Source of the DNA: Trichopria drosophilae
Lineage: Eukaryota > Arthropoda > Insecta > Hymenoptera > Diapriidae
DNA: 64,000 nt
Reading direction: 5' to 3'
Assembly: GCA_030407085.1 (NCBI GenBank)
Contig: CM059585.1
Coordinates: 112,643,501-112,707,500, forward strand
Below are positions 3,965 through 58,289 of this stretch, in pieces. A program made the translations under genes and the position numbers. The notes beneath the pieces are model-generated. The model was not told the origin of the DNA and did no database searches. It was given only the letters and a program-made list of their open reading frames with translations. The first letter of the stretch is position 1, and each line of letters starts with the position of its first letter.

Positions 3965-4210
3965 AATGAAATCGTAGATAGTCAAGTGCTTTCGACAATT
4001 ACGCGTTTAGATTATGAAAAATCTAAAAGCTGTAAAAAAAGAACGAAAAATGAAGAGGAATATGTATGTAGGTTTGGCATCATTTTATCTTTAAATACGC
4101 TTGATTTGGGAATATTCTCCCTCTTTAAGAAACAATGTTTCACTTTTAGAGGAGATATAAATTAGCAACTTCCAATTTTATATTTAGAAATATTTATTAC
4201 ATATATATAT

Positions 4211-4935
4211 ACAGGGTGTACGAAAAGTCCCGGGACGGTTGAATAACTTTCGAAAGAATAAAAATTTCAAAAATCGCCGAAACACGTGATTCGATTTTTC
4301 AAACAAGCTATCTTTTGAGGGGGGGTTTCGGCCCCCCAACCTCAAGGGGGGCGGGGGGCACGAGGGGGGCCAAAAATCTTAAATGGCAACATGATTTGAG
4401 TGGGGGCTCATTCGAAAGGTATTTTCGAGATGAATTCAGATCACTGGTCATAGAGGGCGCTGCGATCATTTTTCGCAGAGATTTTTGACATTTTCAGATC
4501 TTAGACGTACTAACGTTTGAAAAAATGAAAATTTCGAAGTCGCCGAATCGTGTAATTCAATATTCTTAAAAAACTTAAAAAACTTAAAATCGTGTAAAAC
4601 AATATTCTTAAACGTGTGTCAACCCGTTTCTGAACGTTACATTGAAAACCTCTTTTACTTGTATCTCTCCGAAAAATGATCGCAGCGCCCTCTATGACCA
4701 GTGATCTGAATTCGTCTCGAAAATACCTTTCAAATAAGCCCCCACTCAAACCATGTTGCCATTTAAGATTTTTGCCCCCCCCTCGTGCCCCCCGCCCCCC
4801 TTGAGATTCGGGGGCCGAAACCCCCCCTCAAAAGATAGCTTGTTTGAAAAATCGAATCACGTGTTTCGGCGATTTTTGAAATTTTTATTCTTTTGAAAGT
4901 TATTCAACCGTCCCGGGACTTTTCGTACACCCTGT
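4211..4935. mobile_element. Foldback (long inverted repeat) element, 725 bp
   Basis: The left end ACAGGGTGTACGAAAAGTCC is mirrored at the right end by GGACTTTTCGTACACCCTGT. The mirror continues inward for roughly 280-300 bp, including the G-rich block (about 4318-4372) and its C-rich partner (about 4770-4830). The flanks are TATATATA on both sides, so the target duplication cannot be resolved. No transposase is present, and the short open frames inside are by-products of the palindrome. It is a non-autonomous element of unknown superfamily; the ACAGGGTG start is shared with other insect repeats, including one at 43408. Confidence 0.85.
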
Positions 4936-4949
4936 ATATATATTTTTTA

Positions 4950-6220
4950 TATAATCTATTTCAGAAAATATTATTTATTCAAAAGACACACCCCTTCATC
5001 AGTAGCACGTAATGAATGTTATTAATTAATATCGTGTATAAAGTCGTTTTAATATCCGCGAATTAAATTAGAGTTTATAATAAATAATGTCCACCAATAT
5101 AATTATTTACGTTGAATGAAATTAAATTTTCCGTATTATTAATGACGAATATTAAATAATATTATAGATTCTGTGCTTTTGCAAATATTATGATTACATA
5201 CTTTTGGAAATGGTAATAAGCAGGGAAATATTTTGTAAATATTTTAGATTACAGATTTATTTGTAATTATTATGCCCTCGTAAAAGTATCTCTACAAATT
5301 ACAGCGAATGGGAGTCGACAATTTCAGGCCAACATGATAAAAAATTTGAATGTTAAATTCCTTTATTTTTAATTTCATTTACTAATGTTTACCTTTTATA
5401 AAACTTTTAATTATATTTCAATATTATAGTAACAATTTTCAACGCAAACGACTTGATTATTAAAAAAGATAGTTATAAAAGTTATTAATATTTTTATATA
5501 TAAAACATTTTATTACATATAATAACAATTTTCACTCGTTAAATTAATAATACATTAAAGGGATAAAATTTATTAAAATAAATTAAACGTGGAACGATTA
5601 AAAAAATATGGGTAAAAAGATATGTTTTTGTAAAACTTATAACATTTTACAAAAACAAGTCAAAAAAATACAAAATTTTTTTAACACATTGATGTAAGGT
5701 TTGGGCACTTACGAGGCTATCTTCAGAACAAAAACTAGTAAGTCGTGCCTATTCATTTAACCATAGTTTAAACTGGCAATTAAGATCTAGAATACATGTT
5801 TCATACAAAATTACTTTCTAACCTTTTGAGAAGCATGTTTTCAATTATTGAGAAAAATTTTGAATGAATACGGAATCACGACTTGGTTTTCTTTCTGATG
5901 ATGACCTGTATCAAGTGCTGAAACAAAACATATCAAATTGTTGATTATTTCATTCCCAATACCAGGAAATAAAGTAAAAGAACCATCATCCAAAGAAATT
6001 GATTTTTCTAAATTAAAACATTACGTAGAAATACAGAATTCAAATTGAAATGAACTATCTATAATTTTTAATTTTAGTATTTGGATTTAAATTACTCACT
6101 TTATTTATAAATATATATTATAACTCATTTAAACTTTTTTGTTCTAAACTTCACTCGTCATATCTGCAAATTCAGCCACATGTGATGAAAGAGTGAATTT
6201 TTAGTGCTGAAAGCGGCGAT
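4950..6220. other. AT-rich DNA, no gene seen
   Basis: Nothing convincing was found. A sequence at 5893-5927 resembles a ribozyme core (CTGATGA...GAAAC), but stem II does not pair (see the rejected list). Confidence 0.5.
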
Positions 6221-10642: not shown

Positions 10643-11947
10643 ATCCCAGGTAGCACATTTCAGCATCCGCTAACAAAAAGTTATTGAAATGTTAACAAAT
10701 GTTGACAAAAGTTAACATTAGTGAATACCAGGGGGGTGACACTGCTGCTATATTCCCTATGGTATGTCGGTTCTCTTCGTGACCTCCCACTTATCTCAAA
10801 ACTTCATGTATCCAGATGGCGCTTGCAGTCATGTGCTCGGCGAGCTTTGGCGTGATAATCGTAACGCCCTTTTAACTAATATACGTGCACTAGATGTTTA
10901 CAATCGCCGATACGTGGTCTAGGTATCGAACGCCGTGGTTCTTCGTCACTTTAACTAAAATACGTCCACCAGGTGTTTAGGGTCACCGATTACGGGGTCT
11001 AGATATCGCGCACCGTAGTTTTTCAACTCTTCGACTAAAATACGTGCACCAGGTTTTTAGGGTCGTCTATTACGGGGTCTACGTGTAGCGTTCCGTAGAT
11101 TTTCATGTTTATAACTAAAAAACGTGCCCCCGGTGTTTGGGGTTGCCGATCATGTAGTCTAGGTATCCACTTGGTGTTAACCAACGATGACCTTGAGGTC
11201 AAAGTTGAAGGTCATTTCAAGGTCAAATCAATTTTATCTAATAAACAACGGTAACCTTGTCCTTGACCTTGGGCCAAATTTGAATAAAATTTGAAGGTCA
11301 TTTCAAGGTCAAATCAAAATATGTTCAAATTTGAAGAAAAATAAGCAAAATTGATTCGACCTTGAAATGACCTTCAAGTTTGACCTCAAGGTCATCGTTG
11401 GTTAACTCGAAGTCAATACCTAGACCACTTGATCGTCGACCCCAAACGCCTGGTGCATATTTTTTAGTTAAAAAGATGAAAAACTACGGATCGCGATTCC
11501 TAGACACCGTAATCGCCGACCTTGAATACCTGGTGCACGTATTTCAGCTAGAATCATGAAACACTATGGAACTCGATACCTAGACCCCTTGATCGGCGAC
11601 CCGGAACACCTGGTGCATGTATTTCAGCTAGAATCGTGAAAAACTATGCAGCGCGATACCTAGACCCCGTAATCAGCGAACTTAAACATCTGTTGCACAT
11701 ATTTTAGTTAAAATGGGGAAAAACTACTGAGAGCGATACCTAGTCCCCGTAATCGGTCATCCTAAAGACCTGGAGCAAATATGTATTTTGCCAATCCGAT
11801 TCAAAACTGCGAATCGTCATATCACGTTGCCAAGCCTATGTATAGTCGCGCCATCTAGTGATCGCAAATCCTGGGGGTTACGGCGGGAACGTTATGAATG
11901 AAACAGTTTCACCCCCCTGGTGAATACTCAAATATGCTACCTGGGAT
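10643..11947. mobile_element. Short MITE with ATCCCAGGTAGCA ends, itself interrupted
   Basis: ATCCCAGGTAGCA at 10643-10655 is exactly mirrored by TGCTACCTGGGAT at 11935-11947. Subtracting the foldback it contains (10728-11920) leaves only about 110 bp. This is a small hairpin-type element that took a secondary insertion. No target duplication is clear. Confidence 0.6.
10728..11920. mobile_element. Foldback element, 1193 bp, arms made of 80-bp units
   Basis: Terminal repeats CCAGGGGGGTGACACTG and its mirror AGTTTCACCCCCCTGG bound the element. TGAATA is duplicated outside it (10722-10727 and 11921-11926). Each arm carries a tandem series of 80-bp units recognisable by TACGTGCACCAGGTGTTTA and TTACGGGGTCTAGG; unit starts lie near 10881, 10960, 11040 and 11120, then mirrored units run from about 11420 to 11790. 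The centre (11180-11400) is a second inverted repeat rich in AAGGTCA words. There is no coding sequence. Confidence 0.85.
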
Positions 11948-16482: not shown

Positions 16483-16845
16483 TTGTATCGAATTCTTCAT
16501 ACTATGCTTAAAGTGTCCATCTTTTTACCGATTTTATGCGTATATAAAGTTGATATGTTTTCACGATGGACGTGACATACAAATATGGAAATAATACTTA
16601 ACTAAATACTAGATTCGCCCACTTCCTACAGTAATTATGACTGTATCGAGTAAATGTACGACTTAATTAAGAGAAAGTTCGTTTTTTCGTATATTAACAT
16701 TTATCAGGAAGAATAATGTTGACACTCACTCGTGGAAGAGACAAAAAATTTGCAGTTGTGGTCCGAAGGATTTATGGACACTTCATCGTAGCCTATTTCA
16801 TCCTCCCCCACTTCATAGCCTTCCGTTTCATCGTCTACGACACTT

Positions 16846-17031
16846 CATCGTCTGGACACTTCATCGTCTGGGACATTTCATCGTCCGGGACACTTCATCG
16901 TCTGGGACATTTCATCGTCTGAGACACTTCTTCGTCTAGACATTTAATCGTCTGGGACACTTCTTCGACCGGAACACTTAATCGTCCGGGACACTTCATC
17001 GTCTAGGACACTTCATCGTCCGGGACATTTC
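16846..17031. repeat. 17-bp tandem array, left arm
   Basis: About eleven to twelve units of the form GGGACACTTCATCGTCT, with point differences (ATTT for ACTT, CC for CT). Confidence 0.85.
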
Positions 17032-17066
17032 AGCGCGCTCCATACTTTCTTGTGTTATTAGCTTTT

Positions 17067-17280
17067 CTACGTGCACCAGGTGTTTAGGCTCGCCGATTAC
17101 GGGGTCTAGGTGGTGCGCTCCGTAGCTTTTTATGATATTAGCTATTCTACGTGCACTGGGTATTTAGGGTCGACGATTTCGTGGTCTAGATAGTGCGCTC
17201 CGTAGCTTTTTATGTAATTAGCTCAAATACGTGCACCAAGTGTTCGGGGTCACCGATTACGGGGTCGAGGTGGTGCGCTC
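17067..17280. repeat. 80-bp tandem units, left arm
   Basis: Units start near 17067, 17147 and 17227 (spacing 80 bp). Each contains ACGTGCACC, GATTACGGGGTC and GTGCGCTC. Confidence 0.85.
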
Positions 17281-17869
17281 TTCTTCCTCTCTATTTCCCC
17301 ATAGGGAACGGATCCACCGTTGTCCCTCCGCCCTCCATACCCCCTTCTTATACTAACTGAACGTAACTAACCCCCTCAGGGTGTTGTAAGGTTTGCGAAC
17401 CCACGTGCGACTCGGAGAGCTTGGATCCACCGTTGTCCCTATGTCCTGGGGGGCTCCGCCTCCCAGACCCCCCTTTTTATAATAACCTAACCTCCAACCA
17501 ATAGATGTGAGTAAACCCACGCGAAAAATGCATCCCTCCGGATATACCATGAAATGGTTAATTGATTGTATGCACAATTTTTGTTTCCAATGGAGGGCAA
17601 TAAGTAGAGGAGGGTGGCCCAATGCCGACCGTGATGGGAGATATAGAGCAGGGGGTAGTAGGTACAACCCGGTTGGGTTTGGTCGACTTTCCCCTACTTA
17701 TTGCACTACAAGCTCCCCGAGTCGCACGTGGCGTTACAAACTTTACAACACCCTGAGGGGGTTAGTTAGGTTCAATTAGTACAAGAAGGGGGTCTAGGGG
17801 GCAGAGTTTCCCCATGACATAGGGACAACGGTGGATTCAAGCTCAACGAGTCCATATATACCTGCGATT

Positions 17870-18125
17870 CCCTGGTGCACGTATTTGCGCTAATAACATA
17901 AAAAGCTACGGAGCGCACTACCTAGATCCCGTAATCGGCGACTCTGAACACCTGATGCACGTATTTGAGCTAATAACATAAAAAGCTACGGATCGCACTA
18001 CCTAGACACGTAATCGGCAACTCTATACACCCAGTACACGCAGAATAGCTAATAACATAAAATTCTACGGATCCCACCACCTAGCCTGATATCGGCGACC
18101 CTGAAGTCCTGGTGCACGTAGAATA
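17870..18125. repeat. 80-bp tandem units, right arm (mirrored)
   Basis: Mirrored versions of the same unit are recognised by GGTGCACGTA, AGCTAATAACATAAAA, GCTACGGA and CCCGTAATCGGCGA, at about 80-bp steps. Confidence 0.8.
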
Positions 18126-18169
18126 GCTAATAACATAAGAAACTATGAAATGTCCCCGATGATGATGAG

Positions 18170-18370
18170 CCCCGGACGAACAAGTGTCCCGGACGATGAA
18201 ATGTCCCGGACGATGAAATGTCCCAGACGATGAAGTGTCCCAGACGATGAAATGTCCCAGACGATGAAATGTCCCAGACGATGAAGTGTCCCAGACGATG
18301 AAGTGTCCAAGACGATGATGTGTCCAGACGATGAAGTGTCGTAGACGATGAAGTGTCCAGACGATGAAAC
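18170..18370. repeat. 17-bp tandem array, right arm (mirrored)
   Basis: About eleven units of the form AGACGATGAAGTGTCCC, the reverse complement of the left-arm array. Confidence 0.85.
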
Positions 18371-18575
18371 GGAAGGCTATGAAGTGGGGTACGATGAAAT
18401 AGAATAAGATTAAGTGTACTGGTACCGGTCCGAAGCAAGGTCAAAACTTTTGTCTCTATTCTGTTAGTATATCATATTTTTTCAGCTAGTCGTTTTGGCG
18501 CGTTCGTAAAGATCATTCTAAAGACAAAAAGGTCAATTATACCTGTAGTGTCTTACAAAGGTTATATTGTAAACA

Positions 18576-34965: not shown

Positions 34966-36043
34966 ACTTAAATACCCACCCCATCTTACATTACCTCAAA
35001 TGTAAGGCCGTTTTACAATCGAATAGTCATTTTAAATACTCCTAAGTTGTATGGTAGTTTTAGCAATCTTGATTAAATGAAAACAACCTTTTGTCATGGT
35101 AATATATATGTGTGCATGTATGTACGTATGTATCACATAAAAATTAAAGCATTCGCAATATTATGAATAAATATGTCTAAGTACTTTACGAATTGCAGAG
35201 AATTAATTTCATTACTACAACTCAAAGAAAATAGCCAATTAAGAAAAAGTTCTGCGGGTATTGGACGAGATAAACCACTATATAGTTAAAACATTTAATT
35301 CCTTGGTTTTATATTTTTTATTTAATGTTAATAATAATATGTGTATTTATTTAGTTGACGCAGCAAAAAAAATAGTTAATTTTATACACATTAAAATGTA
35401 CAGACGAAATTTCAAGTCCTTATCTTCTGAAGAAGTCTCATAATTGCGAATTAAATTAAATCAAAATTTAAAAATACACTTTTACTCTAAAAACCGAGAT
35501 TTTTAGTGACAAAACAAAAATTAAAATAATGCTAATCGATTGGGAAATTGCAATTGAAATTATTCTCATCTACACATTTTTACAAAATAGCGTAATACTT
35601 TGATTTTGAAGTTAGGTTAAGTGTTTGATTTTTACGGATGCGCAGAAGAATGGAGAACAAATCTCAACCGGAATATGGAATTTGTGTGGTATATGGGAGA
35701 GTCGGGTAGCCCCGACCACCTAAACATTTTATGAAATAACATGAAAAATAATGCATGCAACAAAAGTTATCAACAGATAGAAATATTCTTTGTACCTACA
35801 AAGACATAACTCAAACAAATTTACTTGCAAAAGTCATCAGGCAAATAACAACAGAGAAATAAAATACACTATTTTGTAAAATTTATTTATGATTAATACA
35901 ATTTACCTTAAAATATCCATGGAATTTAAAGTAACAATAAATGTTTTGCATGATTAAAAATGAACTCCGATTAACATGCAATCTTTTCCAACCTAACAAA
36001 ATATCAAAAGAGACGAGTTTCGTAAAATATGGATAAAAAGATT

Positions 36044-36250
36044 ACAGATAGTCTACGCGATAAACTGTGCCCTGGGAGGTCTAGAAAAATTACTAATCGC
36101 GTGTCGATAAAATAATTAAGGAAAAGGCTGTTGTTCACATTAAAAATAATGCCGGAGACATCGCACAAAAACGATATTAGAACAAAGAAAGAAGAAGGCG
36201 AGGTTACATATCGCAAAAAATCAAATAGCTGGACTGAAGAAAATTGGAAA
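36044..36250 (+). pseudogene. Tc1-like transposase N-terminal fragment, left copy
   Basis: Sequence equivalent to the minus-strand fragment at 41284-40970, beginning around the GRPRK linker (here altered to include CCTGGGAGGTCTAGAAAA) and ending with the SWTEENWKKYCFW block. Frameshifts and stops are present. The coding sequence breaks off where the 5S-bearing segment begins. Confidence 0.6.
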
Positions 36251-36556
36251 AAGTATTGTTTTTGGAGAATGTTATATGTGTAGGTGGGTATATGTATTAG
36301 GAAAGTAAATTAGAAAATCTCACCAATCAACAAATACATACATCAATAAATTTTACTTATAGAGCCAATGCATCATTTAATAACCGTTATTGTTAGTTTT
36401 CTCATGTAAAGATTAATTGAGGAAAGTTTAATGAATTATCTACAAACATTTTCTAATATATAACAAATATAAAAAATTACATTATTAAACTCATGATGAG
36501 CGTTGTCTTGCGTGTTTCAGAATCATGTCCCTCTTAAAATTATCACGATTTTATAC

Positions 36557-36674
36557 GGCAACGACCATATCAGTTTGTAAGCACCAGTTCTCGTCTGATC
36601 ACTGAAGTTAAGCAAAGTTGAGCGCGGTCAGTACTTGGATGGGTGACCGCTTGGGAACACCGCGTGTTGTTGTC
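36557..36674 (+). rRNA. 5S ribosomal RNA gene copy (left arm)
   Basis: The 118-nt sequence follows the eukaryotic 5S pattern throughout: GGCAACGACCATA start, AGTTCTCGTCTGATCACTGA, the internal control region AAGTTAAGCAAAGTTGAGCG, TACTTGGATGGGTGACCGC, GGGAACACCGCGTG, and GTTGTTGTC end. The terminal helix still closes (GGCAAC with GTTGTC, allowing one G-U). An eight-T pol III terminator follows at once (36675-36682). Compared with the usual insect sequence there are several C-to-T type changes (CTGATCACTG for CCGATCACCG; GTTGAGC for GTCGGGC), so it may be a 5S variant or an ageing pseudogene. It is identical to the copy at 40677-40560. Confidence 0.9.
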
Positions 36675-37479
36675 TTTTTTTTATTTTTTAAAAAAATTAT
36701 TAGTTTTTCATAATTATATTTGATTTGACAATTATGAAATGTTAGTAAAAAATATTAAAAAATTAATAATAAAAAAATGTTGTTCATGTTATTTATTGCT
36801 CTTTTTTCTATTTCTAGCAATAATAACCGACAATACTTATTATAATAAAAATTAATTAAATAAATTATATTTGACAAAAATAATAAATAACTTTTGTAGA
36901 TATCCCAATATCTGCAATTTACCTTAACAGCATTATGAATTTAAAAACAGAAATATAAACATTAAATAAAAATAAATTTAACAGAAATTAATAATGAAAT
37001 ATACATCATTGATAAAATGTTTAATCATGTTCTTTTAATGTCTAACAGAATCATTTCAGTAGCTTTCGGAGTAAGATTTCATTTCAAAATTGAAGGTCAC
37101 GGGAAAAATTGGTTGCCTTTTCTGTAATTAAATATTCTACTGCTATTTTAGAATCTTTTCGAAAAGAGATACTCAGATTTTTATAGTTATGAATATAATT
37201 GATAATGACGAGTAAATGAAAGTGATGATGTCACAGTATATTTGAGGATTCTACTATGAGAAAGGACTATTGCAATTGACATATGGTAGGTAGAAACCGC
37301 ACAGCAAATTGGTGGGTGTTCTTGAGCAAAAGTCACTAGCGACGTCTCATATCCATTAATTATCTAAATACTAGTGGTACGGGTCTAATTACGCCGAACA
37401 TCGGATTCTCTTCACAGCTGTGGTTTAAGGAGCTATATAGATGTAGTCCTTTAACACGACGGACGAGATTTTATTTAAA

Positions 37480-38065
37480 ATGATCTCGCAGTTAAAGGGT
37501 TCTGGCTACGATGAAAATCCAGAAGGTTGCAACAAACCAAAATTAATTTATTTGGAATTGCTGGTACGCTCGTCGACCAACATGTACTACAAAAGATCAA
37601 CTGTAAAGCAAGGTGGAAGCATTTTGCTTTGGGGTGCATTTTCTTGGATAGCCGTCAGACTAACATTTAAAATTGGTGGCACTATGGATTATACTATGTA
37701 CAAAATATAGTATTGAAACAAATGCTACCTTAGGTTCGTCAGCATTTGCCACGAGGTTGGATTTTCCAAAAAGACATAATCCAAAACATCGATCGCAGCT
37801 ACTTCAGGAGGTATTCAAACAAAACAAAATTTTTGTAAGTTTTGGATTGGCCGAATCAACCTTATTCGAATCCAATCGAATATTTGTGGCAAGAGCTAAA
37901 AGTAAATGTGCTAACTGAACTGCATTGTGGAGAAAGGTTCAAAAAGATTAGATAAATATTTCTCAAGATAGAATTATCAAACTTTTCGATTCGATGCCTT
38001 ATATATGGGCAGTGGTAAGAGCTTCGAATGATATGGCTATGAAGTATTGATGAAGAGATTTTTTA
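37480..38065 (+). pseudogene. Tc1-like transposase, catalytic C-terminal part, frameshifted
   Basis: In one frame TKINLFGIAG appears (matching the Tc1 SKxNLFGSDG block). After a frameshift come YYKRSTVKQGGSILLWGAFS and IGGTMDYTMY, then in another frame GWIFQKDIIQNIDRS, DWPNQPYSNPIEYLWQELK. This is the order of the Tc1 domain: the GGGSVMVWGCFS block, the WIFQQDNDPKHTS block and the SPDLNPIEHLW block. The middle motif has lost its DxxPKH residues and several shifts and stops are present. The N-terminal half is separated from it by a 1.2-kb segment that includes the 5S gene. Confidence 0.75.
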
Positions 38066-39709
38066 TTGTAGTTTTCTTCAGTTTCTGAATTGTTTCCTTA
38101 GATTGATTGCATAATTTATACTTGATCGGATACTTATGAATGATCAATCATTGTTATTGTGTGTAATGCGCGTAAATAGATTTTAAAATATCCAATTAAA
38201 AGGAGAGATTTCCTTTGTCAATTGTGCAGTCACAGTTACCGACTAGTTTCGACCATCGTGAAAGTAATTTCATGCTTTGACGAAGTTGTTGAATACATGT
38301 ATCTATGTATATGACAATGAACGAAGGAAACCACGAACCCGAATTCATTGGAGTAACGTTTGTTTGCTAGCCATGTCCGATAGCTGGGGATGATATTTCG
38401 AAACTTGTTTGTTCGAGATTTGTCTCGGGTAGAACTCAATCTATTACAGTACTTTGGGTAGTACTTGGTGTGGTTCAGATTGACCACGATGCTAAGTCTT
38501 ATTCGGTGCACTTCAGGTCCACCTGTCTAGCTCAATTTCGCATTCGCACGGAGAAATCCAGGAAAATGTCGACGTCAGCCTAGAAAACAATGTTACCCAA
38601 GCGTATACCTTAAATTGATCTCAATTTTTCTTACATCTTCATTTCCAAACTATTAAACAGTTTTTATCCCTGTCGATCTTGTCGTGGATTTTATTTATTT
38701 GTTATTTGTAATTTAATCAGTGATTGACATGAAAATGTTTCTTGTTAAATCTGTCAAGTTTTTATTTTCTGTTTGGCAACTCCTTCGCCGGGATCCCGGT
38801 GTATCGAATCTCTAAAAAGTCGGCCTTAATTTTTTTCATAAATCAGTAATGGTTAAAAAAAATTCAGTCAAAATTTCATCTTTGACAAAAAATGTTTCCA
38901 ACAAAAATTTGCACAAATCTCTGAACTGTACAGACGAGTTTCAGACTTCAGGGGTACCAATGTTCGAAAAAATAAAAAAAATGCAATTAACATCTTTGTT
39001 CAGCATAAGGTGTTATAATTCATTATTAGTTACTTGTAAAATACGATGAACGAAAAATACCTAGTTTTTTGAAAATTTTCGATTACAGGGGAAAGGCAAA
39101 GAATAGCCGTTTGCAAAACCTACTTTAGTCTAGATAAATATAGAATGGTCATTCTACATGCTGAATTTTAATGTCGGTTATTCTACTATGATGCTAACAA
39201 CTTCAACTATATTTATGGATAGTGTAAGGAACAATTTTATTCGTTATATAAACGTTGTCGATATTTATTAAAATCTTTATTAAAATTAATAGTTAATAAT
39301 TATCAGATATTCTAAAATATGTTGTTAAACTAAATCAATTTTGCAGACTTAGCCAGATTAACTTCATATTATTAAATTTAATTTAACTAACTCTCTTCTT
39401 AATCGCTTCCATTTGGTAGTTATAATAACTGACGAAATGTAGTTGAGAACTGATTAAATCATTCACAGTAATTGAAAATTAGTCATGTTTATAATATTTT
39501 TATTGTGCTACAATAACAAGTCCAAATTGTTAGGATATTATCGTTTAGTAACAATTACAATTCCGTTTTTTTATGTGTGAAAATTGCTATTAAAAAATGA
39601 AAAAAACTGATCTTGCGGAGATATAATAATAATAAGATAAGTTCAACAAATTTGTTAACTTAAATAATGAAGATATGCACCGATGATAACTTAATTAGAA
39701 TGTGTAAAT
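38066..39709. other. Spacer between the inverted arms; no recognised gene
   Basis: Contains a GC-richer patch at about 38220-38600 with a 91-codon minus-strand open frame, without any motif or splice-site support. The rest is AT-rich DNA. Confidence 0.5.
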
Positions 39710-41188
39710 TTCTGGATTTTCATCGTAGCCAGAACCCTTTAACTGGGAGATCATTTAAGAAAATCTCGTCTATCGTGTTAAAGGGCTACTTCTATATAGC
39801 TCCTTAAACCACAGCTGTGAAGAGAATCCGATGTTTCGGCGTAATTAGACCCGTACCACTAGTATTTAGATAATTAATGGATATGAGACGTCGCTAGTGA
39901 CTTTTGCTCAAGAACACCCACCAATTTGCTGTGCGGTTTCTACCTACCATATGTCAATTGCAATAGTCCTTTCTCATAGTAGAATCCTCAAATATACTAT
40001 GACATCATCACTTTCATTTACTCGTCATTATCAATTATATTCATAACTATAAAAATCTGAGTATCTCTTTTCGAAAAGATTCTAAAATAGCAGTAGAATA
40101 TTTAATTACAGAAAAGGCAACCAATTTTTCCCGTGACCTTCAATTTTGAAATGAAATCTTACTCCGAAAGCTACTGAAATGATTCTGTTAGACATTAAAA
40201 GAACATGATTAAACATTTTATCAATGATGTATATTTCATTATTAATTTCTGTTAAATTTATTTTTATTTAATGTTTATATTTCTGTTTTTAAATTCATAA
40301 TGCTGTTAAGGTAAATTGCAGATATTGGGATATCTACAAAAGTTATTTATTATTTTTGTCAAATATAATTTATTTAATTAATTTTTATTATAATAAGTAT
40401 TGTCGGTTATTATTGCTAGAAATAGAAAAAAGAGGAATAAATAACATGAACAACATTTTTTTATTATTAATTTTTTAATATTTTTTACTAACATTTCATA
40501 ATTGTCAAATCAAATATAATTATGAAAAACTAATAATTTTTTTAAAAAATAAAAAAAAAGACAACAACACGCGGTGTTCCCAAGCGGTCACCCATCCAAG
40601 TACTGACCGCGCTCAACTTTGCTTAACTTCAGTGATCAGACGAGAACTGGTGCTTACAAACTGATATGGTCGTTGCCGTATGAAATCGTGATAATTTTAA
40701 GAGGGACATGATTCTGAAACACGCAAGACAACGCTCATCATGAGTTTAATAATGTAATTTTTTATATTTGTTATATATTAGAAAATGTTTGTAGATAATT
40801 CATTAAACTTTCCTCAATTAATCTTTACATGAGAAAACTAACAATAACGGTTATTAAATGATGCATTGGCTCTATAAGTAAAATTTATTGATGTATGTAT
40901 TTGTTGATTGGTGAGATTTTCTAATTTACTTTTCTAATACATATACCTACCTACACATATAACATTGTCCAAAAACAATACTTTTTCCAATTTTCTTCAG
41001 TCCAGCTATTTGATTTTTTGCGATATGTAACCTCGCCTTCTTCTTTCTTTGTTCTAATATCGTTTTTGTGCGATGTCTCCGGCATTATTTTTAATGTGAA
41101 CAACAGCCTTTTCCTTAATTATTTTATCGATACGCGATTAGTAATTTTTCTCGGCCTCCCAGGTTTATCGCGTAGAGTATCTGTAGTT
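39710..41188. repeat. Right arm of 1.48-kb inverted duplication carrying a 5S gene
   Basis: Reverse complement of 36044-37524 with scattered single-base differences. At its inner edge the match stops exactly after TTCTGGATTTTC. The left arm continues there into the transposase, while this side continues into unrelated AT-rich DNA. Confidence 0.9.
40560..40677 (-). rRNA. 5S ribosomal RNA gene copy (right arm)
   Basis: Identical over all 118 nt to 36557-36674, in the opposite orientation, with a nine-T terminator on the minus strand (40559-40551). It shares every deviation from the usual insect 5S sequence, so the two descend from one copy by the arm duplication. The upstream 5' flank differs from the other arm by one base. 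No internal 5S promoter element is visibly deleted. Confidence 0.9.
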
Positions 41189-41284: not shown

Positions 41285-41789
41285 TTGTGTTTAACTTATC
41301 GCATAGACCAACAGAAATTGATAGTTTAGTGTTTACATGTCTAACATACGTTTTTGGAATTTAGCCGAACAATCACGAAGAAGCAAAATGCGTTTTGATA
41401 TATTTGTATTTTGTTTGTGTACCTCGTATACAAAGGTCATTCCACGCAAAGAACAAACACTTGTCTGTTGAGGGATCATTGATTTTTCTCTCACTTTGCA
41501 AATGTTTTCTGTATGATACAAGATCAAATATTCAAGACCTCTGATCTGATGTAAACGTTTCATAATCGCTTATTTAGTAAAATATGATATTTTTTTAAAT
41601 TAAAATTTAAATATACATTTTTACATTTTTGCTCTAAAACCCGTGAAGTTTAATAAAAAAATATTTAAATAGTGCTAATTGACTGGACATTTTCCAGGTA
41701 ATTCATTAGCTATTAGGCAAAATTAGCTGAGTTATATTTTTTGTTAATTTCAGTTGTTCAGTTGGTTAGTATAGAAATTATAATATACA

Positions 41790-42708
41790 CTCGTCGATAT
41801 ATTCTATTTGAGCCTTTTCGTGCATGTCTTTGATTCTGGTATATCTGTTAGCATTAAGTATTAATCTAAGTTGTTTGTTTTGAAATCGTTGCAGTAACAT
41901 CTTATTTGTTTTATGCCATTCGATCCGTAAAATGCTATTTTACAAACTTTTGAAATTTTTCGGTCGCATTTTCCGGTCGTATTCAACACGTAGAATGTTA
42001 GTTAATTTTTGAACTTCTTTATCTATGCTACTCTTATCATTAATTTGATTTTGAATTTTAATATTTTTGTTTAAAAGTTGAAACAGCTTCCAGTCTGCTT
42101 TCTTATAGTTTAGGAATTCTTTCTTTTTATTTACTTTCTGTTGTTTTCCTAGCGTGAAAATAACTGGTCGATGATCAGAGCTAAGTTCTACTTTAACTTC
42201 CGGATTACTTATATTATTAACATTTTTATTAATGCCTATGTCAATTAATGTAGGTGTAGAGCCATTATCTGGATACAATGTCGGTTCGTTTGGTAGAATT
42301 AGCATAGCTTCATTATTTTGCATAAAGTTAAACAATGTTTTACCGCTTTTGTTTTCAATATGGCAGTTCCAAGAGCTATGCCTTGCATTCAAGTCTCCGT
42401 AAATTGATATTAAATTAATATTGTTCGAAAATGTTATACCTACGCATTCTATTGATATATTAGCTAATTGTAATTCTTTGAATGGAATATTGTTTTTTAT
42501 AAAGATGGCATCACCGCCAGCTGCATTATCCCTATCCTTTCGTATATATACACTTATAGTTTATAATATCTAATTTAATGTTATTCGTAAATTTAGTTTC
42601 GTTTATCATAACTACATCTATACTAGGACGATCAAGGAATTCCGATAACTCGGATATTTTGTTTCTTAAACCATTTGCGTTCCAACTGCATATTTTAATC
42701 GTATCCAT
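41790..42708 (-). pseudogene. Jockey-like ORF2 remnant: endonuclease fused to C-terminal tail, RT deleted
   Basis: Starting from ATG at 42708, the minus strand reads MDTIKICSWNANGLRNKISE, the first block of an AP-type endonuclease. After frame damage near 42535 it continues with GDLNARHSSWN and SSDHRPVIF (catalytic SDH motif). Near 41940 it passes directly into ILRIEWHKTNKMLLQRFQNK, QLRLILNANRYTRIKDMHEK and a stop near 41793, which resembles the extreme C-terminus of Jockey ORF2. The whole reverse transcriptase (about 500 codons) is missing. The element cannot move by itself. Confidence 0.75.
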
Positions 42709-43407
42709 TATTTTGTAAATTGTTCAGAAAACGTTACAAATACTTCAAATTGTTCTAGTTCCATGGAACATTGTTCTACCTGTGTACGGAGTTCCTTGAT
42801 CGCTTTCAGCATTTTAGTAATGTTACAAATTTTTTTAATTTGGTTTATTTCCGATACTAATGTTTTAATTTCACTGAGTTCTGGTTGTTGCATACTTCTT
42901 ACGTGCGTCGTTTGCTTCGCTCGAGTTTTCATGCATTGATATTGGCTTGTCTAATCCTGTCAAGTGTAGCTGCTCTCTGGTTTGTTGGGCAGTCGAAAAC
43001 CATGCGCTTCTTTGTCTTCCGTATCCTCGTTGTTTCTCTCTTAATGTTGGAAACTCCTGTCGATCATGGATTTCGAATGTTGGCTGCATTGTGCGTGCTG
43101 TTTCTTCTCGTTTCGCTGATCCCGTTGATCCTTTGTTTTTCATGTTTTCCAGTAGGGCAATTCTTTTTTTATATTCTATGCATATGGTAGTAGCATTTGC
43201 GGGATGATCGCCATAGCATTTTGCACATTTTGCAGGGACGTCTTTTGTTTCCTTGCATTCTTTGGTTATGTGATTTTCTGCATATTTTAAGCAACGTGGC
43301 TGTGCGTAACAATTCGCCGTGGCGTGCTCCCACTCTTGGCATCGGTGACACTGGATTATTTTCCTTTTGTTCACATAATTATCCCACTTGTTTTGGGTGT
43401 AATTTAT
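42708..43407 (-). pseudogene. Jockey-like ORF1 (gag-like) remnant
   Basis: The minus strand carries zinc-knuckle motifs: an intact CHRCQEWEHATANC (CX2CX4HX4C), a damaged second (CLKYAENHITKEC, second Cys lost) and a third CAKCYGDHP. Then comes a low-complexity region and, after a +1-type frame change near 42900, a coiled-coil-like C-terminus (ELSEIKTLVSEINQIKKICN ... LEQFEVFVTFSEQF). The gag-like protein binds element RNA in relatives. The 5' side is cut at 43408 by another repeat. The stop codon overlaps the ORF2 start as TAATG (42710-42706). Confidence 0.8.
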
Positions 43408-43790
43408 ACAGGGTGACCCATTTTAACTTCCCCACTTGATTATCTTGAAAGGAATGCTTTTGCTGAAAAAAAAGTTTCAGACATGAGTTTTATTATTTTT
43501 CCCTGGCTATTTAACGATGATATTGAATTTGACCTTGAAGGTTATTTCAAGGTCAAGTTTTTTTTTTTAAATGGAAACCCCTATTTTTTGTCACGGATTC
43601 GGAAAGAGTGGACAATTTTACGTCCGAATACGATACAACCGATATTTTGATCAAGGTGAAACTTAAAAGTTCCCGTAACGGCGAATTACCTGAGCGGGCC
43701 AATATCTCCCTGGCTATTTAATGGTACCATTCAAATTGACCTTGAACATAAACCCATATTTTTTGTCACGGATTCGGATAGAGCACATTT
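43408..43790. mobile_element. ACAGGGTGACCC repeat element, partial
   Basis: It begins ACAGGGTGACCCATTTTAAC. It contains two partial copies of TTTTTGTCACGGATTCGG (near 43587 and 43759) and of CCCTGGCTATTTAA (near 43501 and 43710), as well as AAGGTCA words. It separates two unrelated Jockey remnants. A matching opposite terminus is not visible. Confidence 0.55.
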
Positions 43791-44935
43791 CTGAAAGCTG
43801 CTTGGGATTCCCAACATCGATTGAAATATTTTTCGCTTTTGAAAGTGATGATAGTTTTTTCCTGAATACAATCGTCTCGCTTTTACTAGGATTAATTTTT
43901 ATTTTCCATGTAAAGTAATAATCCTGTATTTTGTTAAAGAGTTCTTGGAGTTCTTCTTGTATAATTTTTGTTTTAGAGCCAACAATATAAATTATCAGAT
44001 CATCTGCGAAAGCTAGTCCATTTTTATGTGGTTCTATGTTTATACCAAATAATTTGAGGAGATCACTATTGTAAATATGGAATAGAATTGGCGAGTTTAC
44101 TGTTCCTTGCTGGAGACCATTTCTTATTTTAAATTCTTTGGTAGACGTATTAGACCCATCTGATGTAATAAATGATTTGTCTGTTATCACACGCCACACT
44201 ATTTTTATTAAATAAGACGGAAATTGTTTTTTTATCATTTTATATATCAATGCCTCGATCCAGATTGTGTCAAATGCCTTTTCCAGGTCTATGAGGCATG
44301 CCCCAACTCTTCTGCTCCCATTTAAAGCCCAGCAAATATCGGATACTAATATTTTGTGAATAGCGTGAGTTGTGGAGAGTTTATGCCGGAATCCGAATTG
44401 ACTTTCCAGAATTACACTATTTTTATTACAGAAATCTGTTAAGGAATTATTTATTAATACCTCAAAAACTTTACTTATGTTCGGTAAAAGGCTAATCGGT
44501 CGCATGTTAGCTGGATTTGAAATATCTTTGTCTTTTTTGGGTAGTGCTATGATTTTTTCTTTTTTCCACTGGGTCGGAAAGTACATATTATTTAATGCGT
44601 TGTTGAACAGAATTGTGTAGAGCCATTTTATTTTTGAAGAAATATGTTTTAATACAATATTAGGAATATCATCTAACCCTGCAGATTTATTATTATTTAA
44701 TTTGTAAAAAATCTTAGACATTTCTCTAGAGATTGTGAAGTATCTTGTTTGATCGCAAATTTGAAGAGGGTTATCGGCTCTATTTTGTTTAGAAAAAGTT
44801 GTTACTGTGATATTTTCCTGACGATCCTTTTCGATTTCTGTTTTCAGTTTATTAGTGTCCCTTATAATAATTTTACTTAATCTGTCTTTTCCGAAACTCT
44901 CATTTTGATTATGAATACTCTCAAAACGGGCTCTT
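43790..44935 (-). pseudogene. Jockey-like reverse transcriptase domain, 3' truncated
   Basis: This is a long minus-strand frame with reverse-transcriptase blocks in order: NNNKSAGLDDIPNIVLKHI (fingers), MRPISLLPNISKVFE, QFGFRHKLSTTHAI, ACLIDLEKAFDTIW (motif A, catalytic D), GLQQGTVNSPILF (motif B) and LAFADDLIIYIV (motif C, FADD in place of the common YADD). The natural frame continues upstream of the first Met to at least 44935. The C-terminal thumb and downstream part are lost at 43790, where the ACAGGGTG repeat begins. The catalytic residues are intact over this segment, so this is the best-preserved protein domain in the window, but the element is dead. Confidence 0.85.
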
Positions 44936-45740
44936 GCGGGAACATGATACTTGGATCATTTATTGGTATTTTTTTATTTTGTTTTTCCAGTACGTTGATA
45001 TTGTACTTTTAAATTCTTGCTTTAGTTTTATTTTCATATCCTTTGATATTGATTTAAGGTTAGCAATTTTTTCTTCTTTATTATTTACTTTGTTGCGACG
45101 CAGATCATTTATTTGGGCTAAAATAAAGCTTTTATCTTTCTGGATTTCTCTGATTTTATTATTTATGTAGGATTCGCACGAATTTTTGTCTTTGTTTTTG
45201 GAACTATTTGGTGAATAGTGTGAACGATGTTTATTTCTATTTCTTTTAAGTACATATCGATTTCGTTATTAGTTAAGTTTCTATCGTTTGGTATCTGAAT
45301 GTTGCAGCTAGAATTTAGTTTAGATTTAAATTTTTCCCAGTTTGTCTTTTTAAAGTTTAGTTTATGATGACTATTTTGTGTTTGCAAAACAAAATCTTTA
45401 TTGAATTGAAAATCAACTTCAATATTTAAAACTTTATGATCGCTGTCGTAAATTATAGAATTTATTGTGTTTTTAGAGTATTTATTAAGTACTTCTAATC
45501 GTGTATCTGTTAAGCAGAGGTCTAAGTAACTGTTACCCGCTGCATAAGACGGATCTTCCGATCCAAAAAGACGTAACTTATAACGAAAATAATTTTTTTC
45601 AAGCCAGGAATTTAGAAACACTCCCCTGGGATTGTTATTACGGTTTTTCCAATTCGCATGTATTGCGTTTAAGTCACCAGCAATGATATAATAGTTTTCT
45701 TTTCTGTCTAGTTTGGCTTCTAGCTGCTTCATTTTTTTCT
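44936..45740 (-). pseudogene. Jockey-like ORF2 endonuclease C-terminal half and linker
   Basis: The minus strand shows YYIIAGDLNAIHANWKNRNN, SYLDLCLTDTRLEV and YDSDHKVLNIEVDF, the middle and end of an AP-type endonuclease with its SDH motif. Frame changes near 45175, 45000 and 44935 join it to CESYINNKIREIQKDKSFIL and the reverse transcriptase. The N-terminal third of the endonuclease is missing. This is a different family from the neighbouring element at 41790-43407. Confidence 0.75.
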
Positions 45741-45950
45741 TTGATTATTTTGATTAAATCATCATTATTGTAGTCCTCTTCTGTTAGAAGACTTTGTAGT
45801 ACTTCATACCTGTTTTTATCAGTAGATTGATTGTCACCGATTTCCATTGTTATATTAGAATTTACAGGAGCGTCGTTTGTAATATTGTCTAATTTTTCTT
45901 TTGATTTCCTTTTGGTGAGGTTAGGTTTTGGGTTCAGTTTTATGTGATAA
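45741..45950 (-). pseudogene. Jockey-like ORF1 N-terminal fragment
   Basis: An open minus-strand frame reads NPKPNLTKRKSKEKLDNITN ... DKNRYEVLQSLLTEEDYNND. The 'NRYEVL' phrase with an acidic tail is like the N-terminal part of Jockey gag-like proteins. It abuts the middle of the endonuclease, so the rest of ORF1 and the start of ORF2 are deleted. Confidence 0.5.
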
Positions 45951-57038: not shown

Positions 57039-57944
57039 GAAACTTTGAAATCAGTTGGCCCCTCCTCGATGTTGAAGAAAAAAATTAATATTATGAAAAG
57101 GTAACTTTGTTAAGAATAACAATCAGCATCTTTTTTCTAAATACTTTTTTTTTTGTTCAATCTATATTTTTAATAATAATGAAGATAAAATGGAAAAAAG
57201 TTTATGTATTTAATTATATTTTAAAACATATATTGCCGTAAATTAGTCAATTATGAATGAAACTTTTTGAAATTTGGTACACATATTATGCAGTATACCT
57301 TGGTGAAGCCCATAAAATAATGAAAGCATAGAAATATATCTATTGTTTAATAATAATTAATTTCAAAGTGCAGAAAGTCGGAAATGCGTTTGCCCCAATT
57401 TCATATGCTGACCATAGCTCCGCGCTTTTTCTTGACAATCGAAAATCGTTTTTAATTTTTAATCTTTTGTTGTGAAATCTTCACGAAAAACTTCATTCAA
57501 CTATGGGGAACTAATCTCTCGCCAGAAGTTTTTTCAATTCTTCACCGAATGTGAACTGGCCAGCGCATGAAGTTTAGCAATCGTGTTTTCGACGTTCTTC
57601 ACTTTGAAATTAATTATTATTAAACAATCGATATATTTCTATGTTTTCATTATTTTATGGGTTTCATCAAGGTATACTATACATGTGTACCTTATTTCAG
57701 AAAGTTTCATTAAAAAATTACTAATTTATGGCAATTTATGTTTTAAAATATATATTAATTAAATTCACAAACTTTTTTTCATTTTATCTTCATTATTATT
57801 AAAAATATAGATTGAATAAAAGAAAGGATTGAGAAAAAAGATGAAGATTGTTATTCTTAACAAAGTTACCCATTCATAATATTAATTTTTCGAACTTTAA
57901 TTTTTTCCTTCAATATCGGCGAGGGGCCAACTGATTTCGAAGTT
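57039..57944. mobile_element. Foldback element, about 0.9 kb
   Basis: The left arm (57039-57371) begins AAACTTTGAAATCAGTTGGC. The right arm (57600-57944) ends GCCAACTGATTTCGAAGTTT. The arms mirror each other over more than 300 bp (for example TTAATATTATGAA versus TTCATAATATTAA), with roughly 10-15% differences by eye and a loop of about 230 bp. TTTACAACAC/TTTACAATAT words outside both arms hint that the true element is larger (about 56640-58080). No coding sequence. Confidence 0.75.
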
Positions 57945-58289
57945 TCGAGCCCTCGTCGAGTTTTATGATCCGGAACCTCAATTGTACAACAAATGTCTAC
58001 TAATTTCATTGTACATTACAAGAACTGTAGGTTTACAATATAAATTGTTAATAGTGTAGGATTACAATATCTACAAATTATAATTTTATCGGCCGATGAC
58101 TTATAAAAACAAAAAAAATCGTTCACGAAACGATTTCACAAAAACGTCGTTTATTCGGTAGTTGGAATGATTTCGAGAAGTGAGCGTTTTAAATATTTAT
58201 TGAAATTTCTATTATGACATACGTTTTGTTGGTTACAAGCCGATAAATTTATTAATTATTTATGAAACAATATTTTTTTTTTCTTTTTG

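What the first reader, a model, noticed from the sequence alone, without database searches (positions are those of the whole stretch)
36044..41188. Recent 1.48-kb inverted duplication carrying two identical 5S rRNA genes
Two near-identical arms in opposite orientation, about 2.2 kb apart, each carry the same 118-nt 5S copy with a T-run terminator. 5S genes normally sit in tandem arrays. A head-to-head palindromic pair embedded in transposon DNA points to a recent unusual duplication, or to gene conversion keeping the arms alike. An assembly error joining two haplotypes is the main alternative.
Basis: partly seen in the sequence, partly recalled or inferred. Interest (0 to 1): 0.75.

Follow-up and report, generated by a model that had tools for sequence, protein, structure and literature searches.

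The report
Palindromic 5S gene pair kept alike
Two identical 5S ribosomal RNA genes face each other in a 5-kb palindrome built from an old, broken transposon, and the pattern of differences suggests that the two halves have recently been copied over one another by gene conversion rather than simply duplicated.

Summary
Arms 36043-37524 and 39710-41185 (inverted) align over 1484 columns with 16 substitutions and 10 gap columns; the 5S genes are identical (119/119) but converge, tail to tail, not head to head. Differences are uneven: 10 of 16 substitutions lie in 144 edge bases, 6 in the 1338-base core (scan p<=0.0005). An older duplication whose core was recently homogenised by arm-to-arm gene conversion fits better than one recent duplication. 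Each arm is a 5S-bearing segment joined to decayed Tc1 transposase; on the left it interrupts the gene at a site uninterrupted in another genomic copy. Tc1 5' sequence lies clearly beside the right arm only, 3' sequence beside the left only, as one spacer inversion would leave them. The arm is not a dispersed element among the matches scored. A second convergent pair of the same 5S subtype, one gene broken by a LINE, lies 1.3 Mb away. Among 47 scored 5S matches these are the only opposite neighbours within 10 kb; 21 pairs agree, 18 of them in one array. Mechanism inferred; no reads or RNA seen.

The parts
36043..37524 (+). left arm of the inverted repeat
39710..41185 (-). right arm of the inverted repeat
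36557..36675 (+). 5S rRNA gene, left copy, followed by T-run terminator
   Evidence: RF00001 103.7 bits; 33 of 34 model pairs standard
40559..40677 (-). 5S rRNA gene, right copy, identical to the left over 119 nt, followed by T-run terminator
36104..37441 (.). homogenised core of the arm: 6 substitutions and two 1-nt indels in 1338 nt; partner is about 41130-39791
36043..36103 (.). outer edge of the arm: 4 substitutions and a 6-nt indel in 61 nt
37442..37524 (.). inner edge of the arm: 6 substitutions and a 2-nt indel in 83 nt
36038..36269 (+). decayed Tc1 transposase, about codons 45-152, with a gap of roughly 28 codons and frameshifts shared by both arms; one relative (P0004) also matches weakly outward to 35981
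   Evidence: tblastn with P0001-P0010; DNA match to L075
40965..41532 (-). decayed Tc1: transposase codons 16-152 at 41271-40965 and upstream sequence aligning with L075 out to 41532, within its 5' terminal repeat; beyond 41185 it lies outside the arm
36270..37532 (+). about 1263-nt 5S-bearing segment that interrupts the Tc1 gene between codons 152 and 153 (left copy); 36408-37137 has a 73-82% relative at C4:112.410 Mb
37533..38190 (+). decayed Tc1 transposase codons 153-338 (to 38047) and sequence after it; lies in the spacer, beside the left arm only
37525..39709 (.). spacer between the arms; about 38789-39067 belongs to a dispersed repeat of the genome
35456..35564 (+). left member of a 69% direct repeat flanking the palindrome
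   Evidence: E=2.4e-10
41595..41707 (+). right member of that direct repeat

Best explanation
A 5S rRNA gene with its flanks (about 1.26 kb) came to lie inside an old Tc1 transposon copy. About 1.48 kb of this composite was duplicated in inverted orientation some 2.2 kb away, long enough ago for the unconverted edges to differ by about 7%. Since then the two arms have paired, as a hairpin or between sister chromatids or homologues, and non-crossover gene conversion has recently overwritten some 1.34 kb of one arm with the other, leaving the two 5S genes identical. A crossover in the same kind of intermediate would invert the spacer; that would explain why the Tc1 5' part is beside one arm and its 3' part beside the other. 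Shown: the arms, the 5S genes, the Tc1 interruption, the uneven divergence, a second convergent pair of the same subtype. Inferred: conversion as the cause, the order of events, the inversion, and that the genes are transcribed.
For: Core/edge contrast: 6 substitutions in 1338 nt against 10 in 144 nt; the scan statistic (13.7) exceeded all 2000 uniform simulations (largest 10.6). The identity is not confined to the 5S gene but covers AT-rich sequence and Tc1 debris, so selection on 5S alone cannot explain it. The outer edges carry changes of their own: the left arm keeps 6 nt that Tc1 relatives have and the right lacks; the right keeps a Pro codon that the left changed. A second convergent inverted 5S pair of the same subtype lies at C4:113.999-114.003 Mb and is also more alike within the pair (3 differences in 93 nt of the 5' part, 0 in the 97-nt 3' gene part) than between pairs (11-15, and 1 between the two left copies). 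Tc1 flanks: right outer flank against L075 scores 133 (100 shuffles at most 66); left inner flank scores 605 (no shuffle run; BLAST E=8e-100); left outer (57, shuffles to 70) and right inner (61, shuffles to 86) are at shuffle level.
Against: No population data or reads, so no conversion event was observed. The core/edge boundary was chosen after seeing the data (the scan test allows for this; the Fisher test, p=2.7e-7, does not). In the second pair one of the two 5S genes is broken by a LINE that the other arm lacks, so conversion has not kept that pair alike throughout. Trees of the short 5S regions are poorly resolved: the second pair has support 69 (5' part) and 46 (3' part), the concatenated tree puts the array sequence inside it (56), and in the raw 3' part distances WR is nearer EL (1) than WL (3) because of T-run length (W = window pair, E = second pair, L/R = left/right copy). 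One Tc1 relative, P0004, matches the left copy out to 35981 (codons 25-66, 48%) and a permissive BLAST stretched the arms to 35998-37551, so the left copy may keep a little more decayed Tc1 5' sequence than the DNA test shows, which weakens the inversion reading. Complementary flanks are also expected about half the time for any two partial copies (my estimate). A comparison of the window's own presumed Tc1 ends found no terminal repeats (35 of 200 shuffles as high).
Confidence: 0.68

Rival explanations
1. A single recent inverted duplication of 1.48 kb; the arms are alike because they are young, and the edges differ by chance or local hypermutation.
For: 98.2% overall identity; only one locus with full-length arms among the scored matches.
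Against: Uniform accumulation of differences is rejected by the scan test. Copying 1.48 kb alone derives neither arm's surroundings from the other: the right has Tc1 5' sequence not detected beside the left at DNA level, and the left has Tc1 3' sequence that was not detected beside the right.
Confidence: 0.17
2. Two copies of a mobile element that carries 5S in its repeats (5S-LTR elements such as Cassandra or Ajax, a foldback element with long terminal inverted repeats, or a 5S-derived SINE) landed in inverted orientation.
For: The insert in the Tc1 gene could be read as TG...CA with a 4-nt duplication ACAA (my reading); a second inverted 5S pair exists.
Against: The arm search gave 75 matches from 40 scored of 79 candidates: full length only for the two arms, the rest being 5S with its close flank or relatives on C4. 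Homology to the C4 relatives stops at different inner points (36408-37137; 36455-36746; 36468-36746; 36503-36690), not at the insert's ends (the upstream side of the 91.377-Mb copy was not tested). No direct repeat longer than 21 nt was found in 36240-37560. The second pair shares only 188 nt with this one.
Confidence: 0.07
3. Assembly error: an inverted join of two copies or two haplotypes.
For: Short near-identical inverted arms can be mis-joined; reads were not available.
Against: Surroundings of the arms similar only at shuffle level, a 2.2-kb spacer found full length only here among scored matches, differences concentrated at the edges; total length 5.1 kb, within ordinary long reads; a 121-Mb contig; a second pair with the same orientation elsewhere.
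Confidence: 0.05

Closest known systems
Gene-converting chromosome palindromes, e.g. human Y palindrome P6 (PMC3723533, abstract read)
   Same: Inverted arms kept alike by gene conversion with kilobase tracts; crossover inverts the spacer only rarely.
   Different: Here a 1.5-kb arm in a mobile-element region of an unnamed eukaryote, carrying 5S rRNA genes; conversion is inferred from one assembly.
Transposon-linked 5S genes of insects, e.g. Tribolium freemani 5S arrays interrupted by Jockey-like elements (PMC11202950, Results section and passages read)
   Same: 5S genes in several places, with LINEs among or in them.
   Different: There the genes are in tandem arrays; here an isolated convergent pair inside Tc1 debris.
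Cassandra and Ajax (TRIM elements with 5S sequence in LTRs; PMC10886601, abstract and section 3.7 read)
   Same: 5S sequence inside transposable-element DNA.
   Different: No direct LTRs found, no dispersed copies among scored matches, a complete 5S with its own T run, inverted rather than direct arrangement.

Membership tests
Gene-converting palindrome | two inverted arms alike well beyond any gene they contain | tested here: met
   1484 columns, 98.2%
Gene-converting palindrome | divergence lower in the arms' interior than at the ends of homology | tested here: met
   6/1338 against 10/144, scan p<=0.0005
Gene-converting palindrome | copies within a locus more alike than copies between loci | tested here: inconclusive
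   5' part distances agree (1 and 3 within pairs, 11-15 between); 3' part distances and tree support do not settle it
Gene-converting palindrome | conversion events or spacer inversions seen among individuals | not testable with these tools
   one assembly, no reads
Functional 5S rRNA gene | complete structure and T-run terminator | tested here: met
   33 of 34 pairs standard; all 13 double changes from the Rfam consensus pair; a T run follows
Functional 5S rRNA gene | internal promoter boxes A, IE and C intact | not tested
   no box model was applied; the region looks intact from recall only
Functional 5S rRNA gene | gene more conserved than its flank between loci | tested here: met
   4 of 119 against 8 of 54 between the two C4 pairs, p=0.0097
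Functional 5S rRNA gene | transcribed and incorporated into ribosomes | not testable with these tools
   no RNA data
Cassandra/Ajax 5S-LTR elements | two direct LTRs holding the 5S | tested here: not met
   arms inverted; longest direct repeat in 36240-37560 is 21 nt
Cassandra/Ajax 5S-LTR elements | dispersed copies with common ends | tested here: not met
   (40 of 79 candidates scored)
Cassandra/Ajax 5S-LTR elements | TG...CA ends and short target duplication | tested here: inconclusive
   TG...CA and ACAA possible for the left copy, boundaries chosen to fit
SINE3 (5S-derived SINE) | 5S head fused to a tail, many dispersed copies | tested here: not met
   complete 5S with immediate T run; no dispersed copies of the flank among scored matches
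Tc1 transposon (host of the 5S segment) | Tc1-type transposase sequence with HTH and DDE domains | tested here: met
   relatives of 338 aa with PF01498 and PF13358; the window pieces and the joined reading reach no Pfam cut-off themselves
Tc1 transposon (host of the 5S segment) | terminal inverted repeats | tested here: inconclusive
   L075 has them (195 columns, 77%) and the right flank aligns into its 5' one; none shown directly within the window

The most novel reading that the evidence does not exclude
On this chromosome a minor 5S rRNA gene subtype, 12-17 positions different from nine other forms sequenced here but with its folding kept, survives as convergent palindromic pairs whose arms correct each other by gene conversion and occasionally invert the spacer: a two-gene substitute for the tandem array in keeping 5S copies uniform, while the three unpaired copies of the subtype are broken by a 5S-specific LINE and have decayed.
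Probability: 0.27. Interest if true: 0.68.

Novelty: new variant of a known kind. Interest (0 to 1): 0.5.

Why it matters
Concerted evolution of rRNA genes is usually explained by unequal exchange and conversion in long tandem arrays. A two-copy palindrome of 5S genes isolates the conversion part: it gives a minimal, sequenceable system in which tract ends, edge effects and crossover-driven inversion can be read from flanking marks (the Tc1 halves). The same genome offers contrasts: a second palindrome with one gene broken, three unpaired copies broken by an apparently site-specific LINE, and a tandem array of another 5S form.

Tried and rejected
5S-LTR elements, SINE3 and foldback elements were considered and set aside because the arm's flanks are not dispersed among the scored matches and homology to relatives ends at inner points. 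A comparison of presumed Tc1 ends, to show that the right 5' part and the left 3' part are one element, failed (35 of 200 shuffles as high). Homology of the arms beyond their ends was tested and was at shuffle level, outer and inner, though a permissive BLAST stretched the alignment by 45 and 27 nt on the left arm. Exact 5S patterns in viral contigs and genome contigs gave 0 matches. Pfam scans of the Tc1 pieces and of the joined reading reached no curated cut-off, and a PDB search with the N-terminal piece found nothing; the protein search did identify them. The flanks at C4:91.34 Mb form a 74-81% inverted repeat, but one side of it is a high-copy repeat (97 matches from 40 scored of 896 candidates), so it is not counted as a third 5S palindrome. 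A count of LINE-5S junctions by pattern did not complete. Paper searches listed no paper that I recognised as describing an inverted or palindromic 5S pair; apart from the papers named as read, only listings were seen. PMC11354594 was seen in passages.
Full report
Observation. The window is position 112,643,501-112,707,500 of contig C4 of an unnamed 936-Mb genome in 509 contigs. From its LINEs, Tc1 elements and arthropod-like 5S I take it for an insect (inference, partly recall; no name was given). The inverted repeat is as described: left arm 36043-37524, right arm 41185-39710, 1484 alignment columns, 16 substitutions, 10 gap columns. Rfam finds one 5S gene per arm, 103.7 bits each. They are identical over 119 nt. 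The left gene is on the + strand and the right on the - strand, so they converge; 'head-to-head' is wrong.

The differences are clustered. Of the 16 substitutions, 4 (plus a 6-nt indel) lie in the outermost 61 nt and 6 (plus a 2-nt indel) in the innermost 83 nt; the 1338 nt between hold 6 and two 1-nt indels. A scan statistic over all interior/exterior splits was higher than in every one of 2000 simulations with 16 uniformly placed differences. The homology of the edges is real: identical runs of up to 20 nt (outer) and 36 nt (inner) lie among and beyond the differences. Further out and in, similarity is at shuffle level, although a permissive BLAST stretched the alignment to 35998-37551. At the outer edge, comparison with Tc1 relatives shows changes of its own in each arm: the edges have an older history than the core.

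What the arms are. The outer part of each arm is decayed Tc1 transposase. A frame-joined reading found 12 relatives, the best four by E-value at 48-52% identity. With these, tblastn places Tc1 codons 45-152 at 36038-36269 (left arm), codons 16-152 at 41271-40965 (right arm and beyond), and codons 153-338 at 37533-38047, in the spacer beside the left arm. So in the left copy the reading breaks after about codon 152 and resumes some 1263 nt later. A Tc1 copy at C3:135.02 Mb (L075) runs through this point without an insert and has inverted ends (195 columns, 77%). In a genome search with the spacer, 11 of 15 Tc1-type matches begin at query base 15, window 37534, and the other 4 at query bases 73-93 (40 of 614 candidates scored). 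So a 5S-bearing segment lies inside a Tc1 gene. The arms share the same missing codons and the same junction, so the decay and the insertion came before the duplication.

The Tc1 flanks are complementary. Against L075 the sequence outside the right arm scores 133 (100 shuffles at most 66) and aligns into the 5' terminal repeat; that inside the left arm scores 605; the other two sides are at shuffle level (57 with shuffles to 70; 61 with shuffles to 86). Against this stands one protein match, P0004 codons 25-66 at 35981-36103, which hints at a little more decayed Tc1 on the left. One inversion of the spacer by crossover between the arms would reunite a single Tc1 copy on the right and leave the left arm as a bare partial duplicate. 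Two independent truncations would do as well, so the inversion is possible, not shown. There is a precedent: in human Y palindrome P6 conversion is frequent, tracts average about 2 kb and inversions are rare (PMC3723533, abstract read).

The genome. RF00001 gave 47 scored matches out of 19,624 first-look candidates, so counts are lower bounds. Of the 30 whose sequence was cut out there are 11 distinct forms; the window form differs from 9 of the others by 12-17 positions and from the copy at C4:113.999 Mb by 4. A cluster of 19 matches at C5:22.29-22.34 Mb is all in one orientation. Among 23 neighbouring pairs within 10 kb, 21 agree in orientation, 18 of them within that cluster and only 3 elsewhere; the 2 opposite pairs are the window pair and C4:113,999,014 (+) with C4:114,002,624 (-). 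That second pair is again convergent, with arms of 93.7% over 190 nt and 98.5% over 131 nt; its right 5S is broken by an insertion of about 790 nt. It shares 188 nt around the 5S with the window (93%) and has no Tc1 match. A search with the whole arm returned 75 matches from 40 scored of 79 candidates: only the two window arms are full length; C4:112.410 Mb matches pieces of 36408-37137 at 73-82%; C4:91.343 and 91.377 Mb match about 280-290 nt; the rest are 5S and its close flank. On this evidence the arm is not a dispersed mobile element.

Are the genes used? Across 12 aligned copies (11 distinct) 96.3% of cells of the 34-pair structure are standard pairs and 6 pairs have changes on both sides (shuffles 3.5 on average, 5 of 500 as high; slid structures 0 or 1). 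One measure went the other way: 8 further pair types against 11.0 in shuffles, all 500 at least as high. Between the two C4 pairs the gene has 4 differences in 119 and the upstream flank 8 in 54 (p=0.0097). Of four copies broken by a LINE, three (112.410, 91.343, 91.377 Mb) have 5-6 substitutions from the window form in the 96-97 nt of the 3' gene part and 31 of 34 pairs standard; the fourth, in the second palindrome, is identical to its partner there and keeps 33 of 34, as do the intact copies. This fits constraint on intact copies, in a small sample. Transcription was not tested.

Reading. I favour an older inverted duplication of a Tc1-plus-5S segment with recent gene conversion of the core. 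Both neighbouring pairs of this subtype are convergent palindromes, while the other neighbours seen agree in orientation; outside the one array this contrast rests on 2 pairs against 3. Whether the second pair was born with the first or independently is open, and the short trees do not decide.

Noticed in passing
L067 230-4840 (C4:91.372 Mb), L031 7722-8509 (C4:114.003 Mb), L066 4600-4741 (C4:91.343 Mb), L064 5337-5386 (C4:112.410 Mb): Four copies of the window's 5S subtype carry an insertion at the same place (about 5S nt 23-39) with the target AAGCACCAGTTCTC duplicated (0-1 mismatch) and an A-rich 3' junction; the longest is a 4.6-kb LINE with CCHC-like and RT reading frames (judged by eye), two shorter inserts align to its 3' end, the 50-nt one is too short to place. 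It looks like a 5S-specific non-LTR retrotransposon; compare Mutsu of zebrafish as cited in PMC11202950.
   Followed up: partly
window 43830-45941 (-): A 90-96% copy of that LINE in pieces, both ends missing and not inserted in a 5S gene; remnants with a gag-like frame (by eye) and an endonuclease domain lie at 41940-43422.
   Followed up: partly
L068 (C5:22,293,001-22,303,000): In the 5S cluster a repeat of about 201 nt carries only the first 45 nt or so of the 5S gene with 10 nt upstream, many times between complete 5S genes; compare the satellite with a 5S end piece in Tribolium freemani (PMC11202950).
   Followed up: no
window 35456-35564 and 41595-41707: A 69% direct repeat flanks the palindrome 410-480 nt outside each arm, in the same orientation on both sides; origin unknown.
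   Followed up: partly
window 10867-11788, 16775-18417, 4179-4970, 57039-57946: Further inverted repeats of 75-94% in the window, the first two built partly of about 80-nt tandem units.
   Followed up: no
window 37446-37501: A possible hairpin (CCTTTAAC...GTTAAAGG) near the inner end of the 5S-bearing insert, better matched in the right arm's version (read by eye).
   Followed up: no
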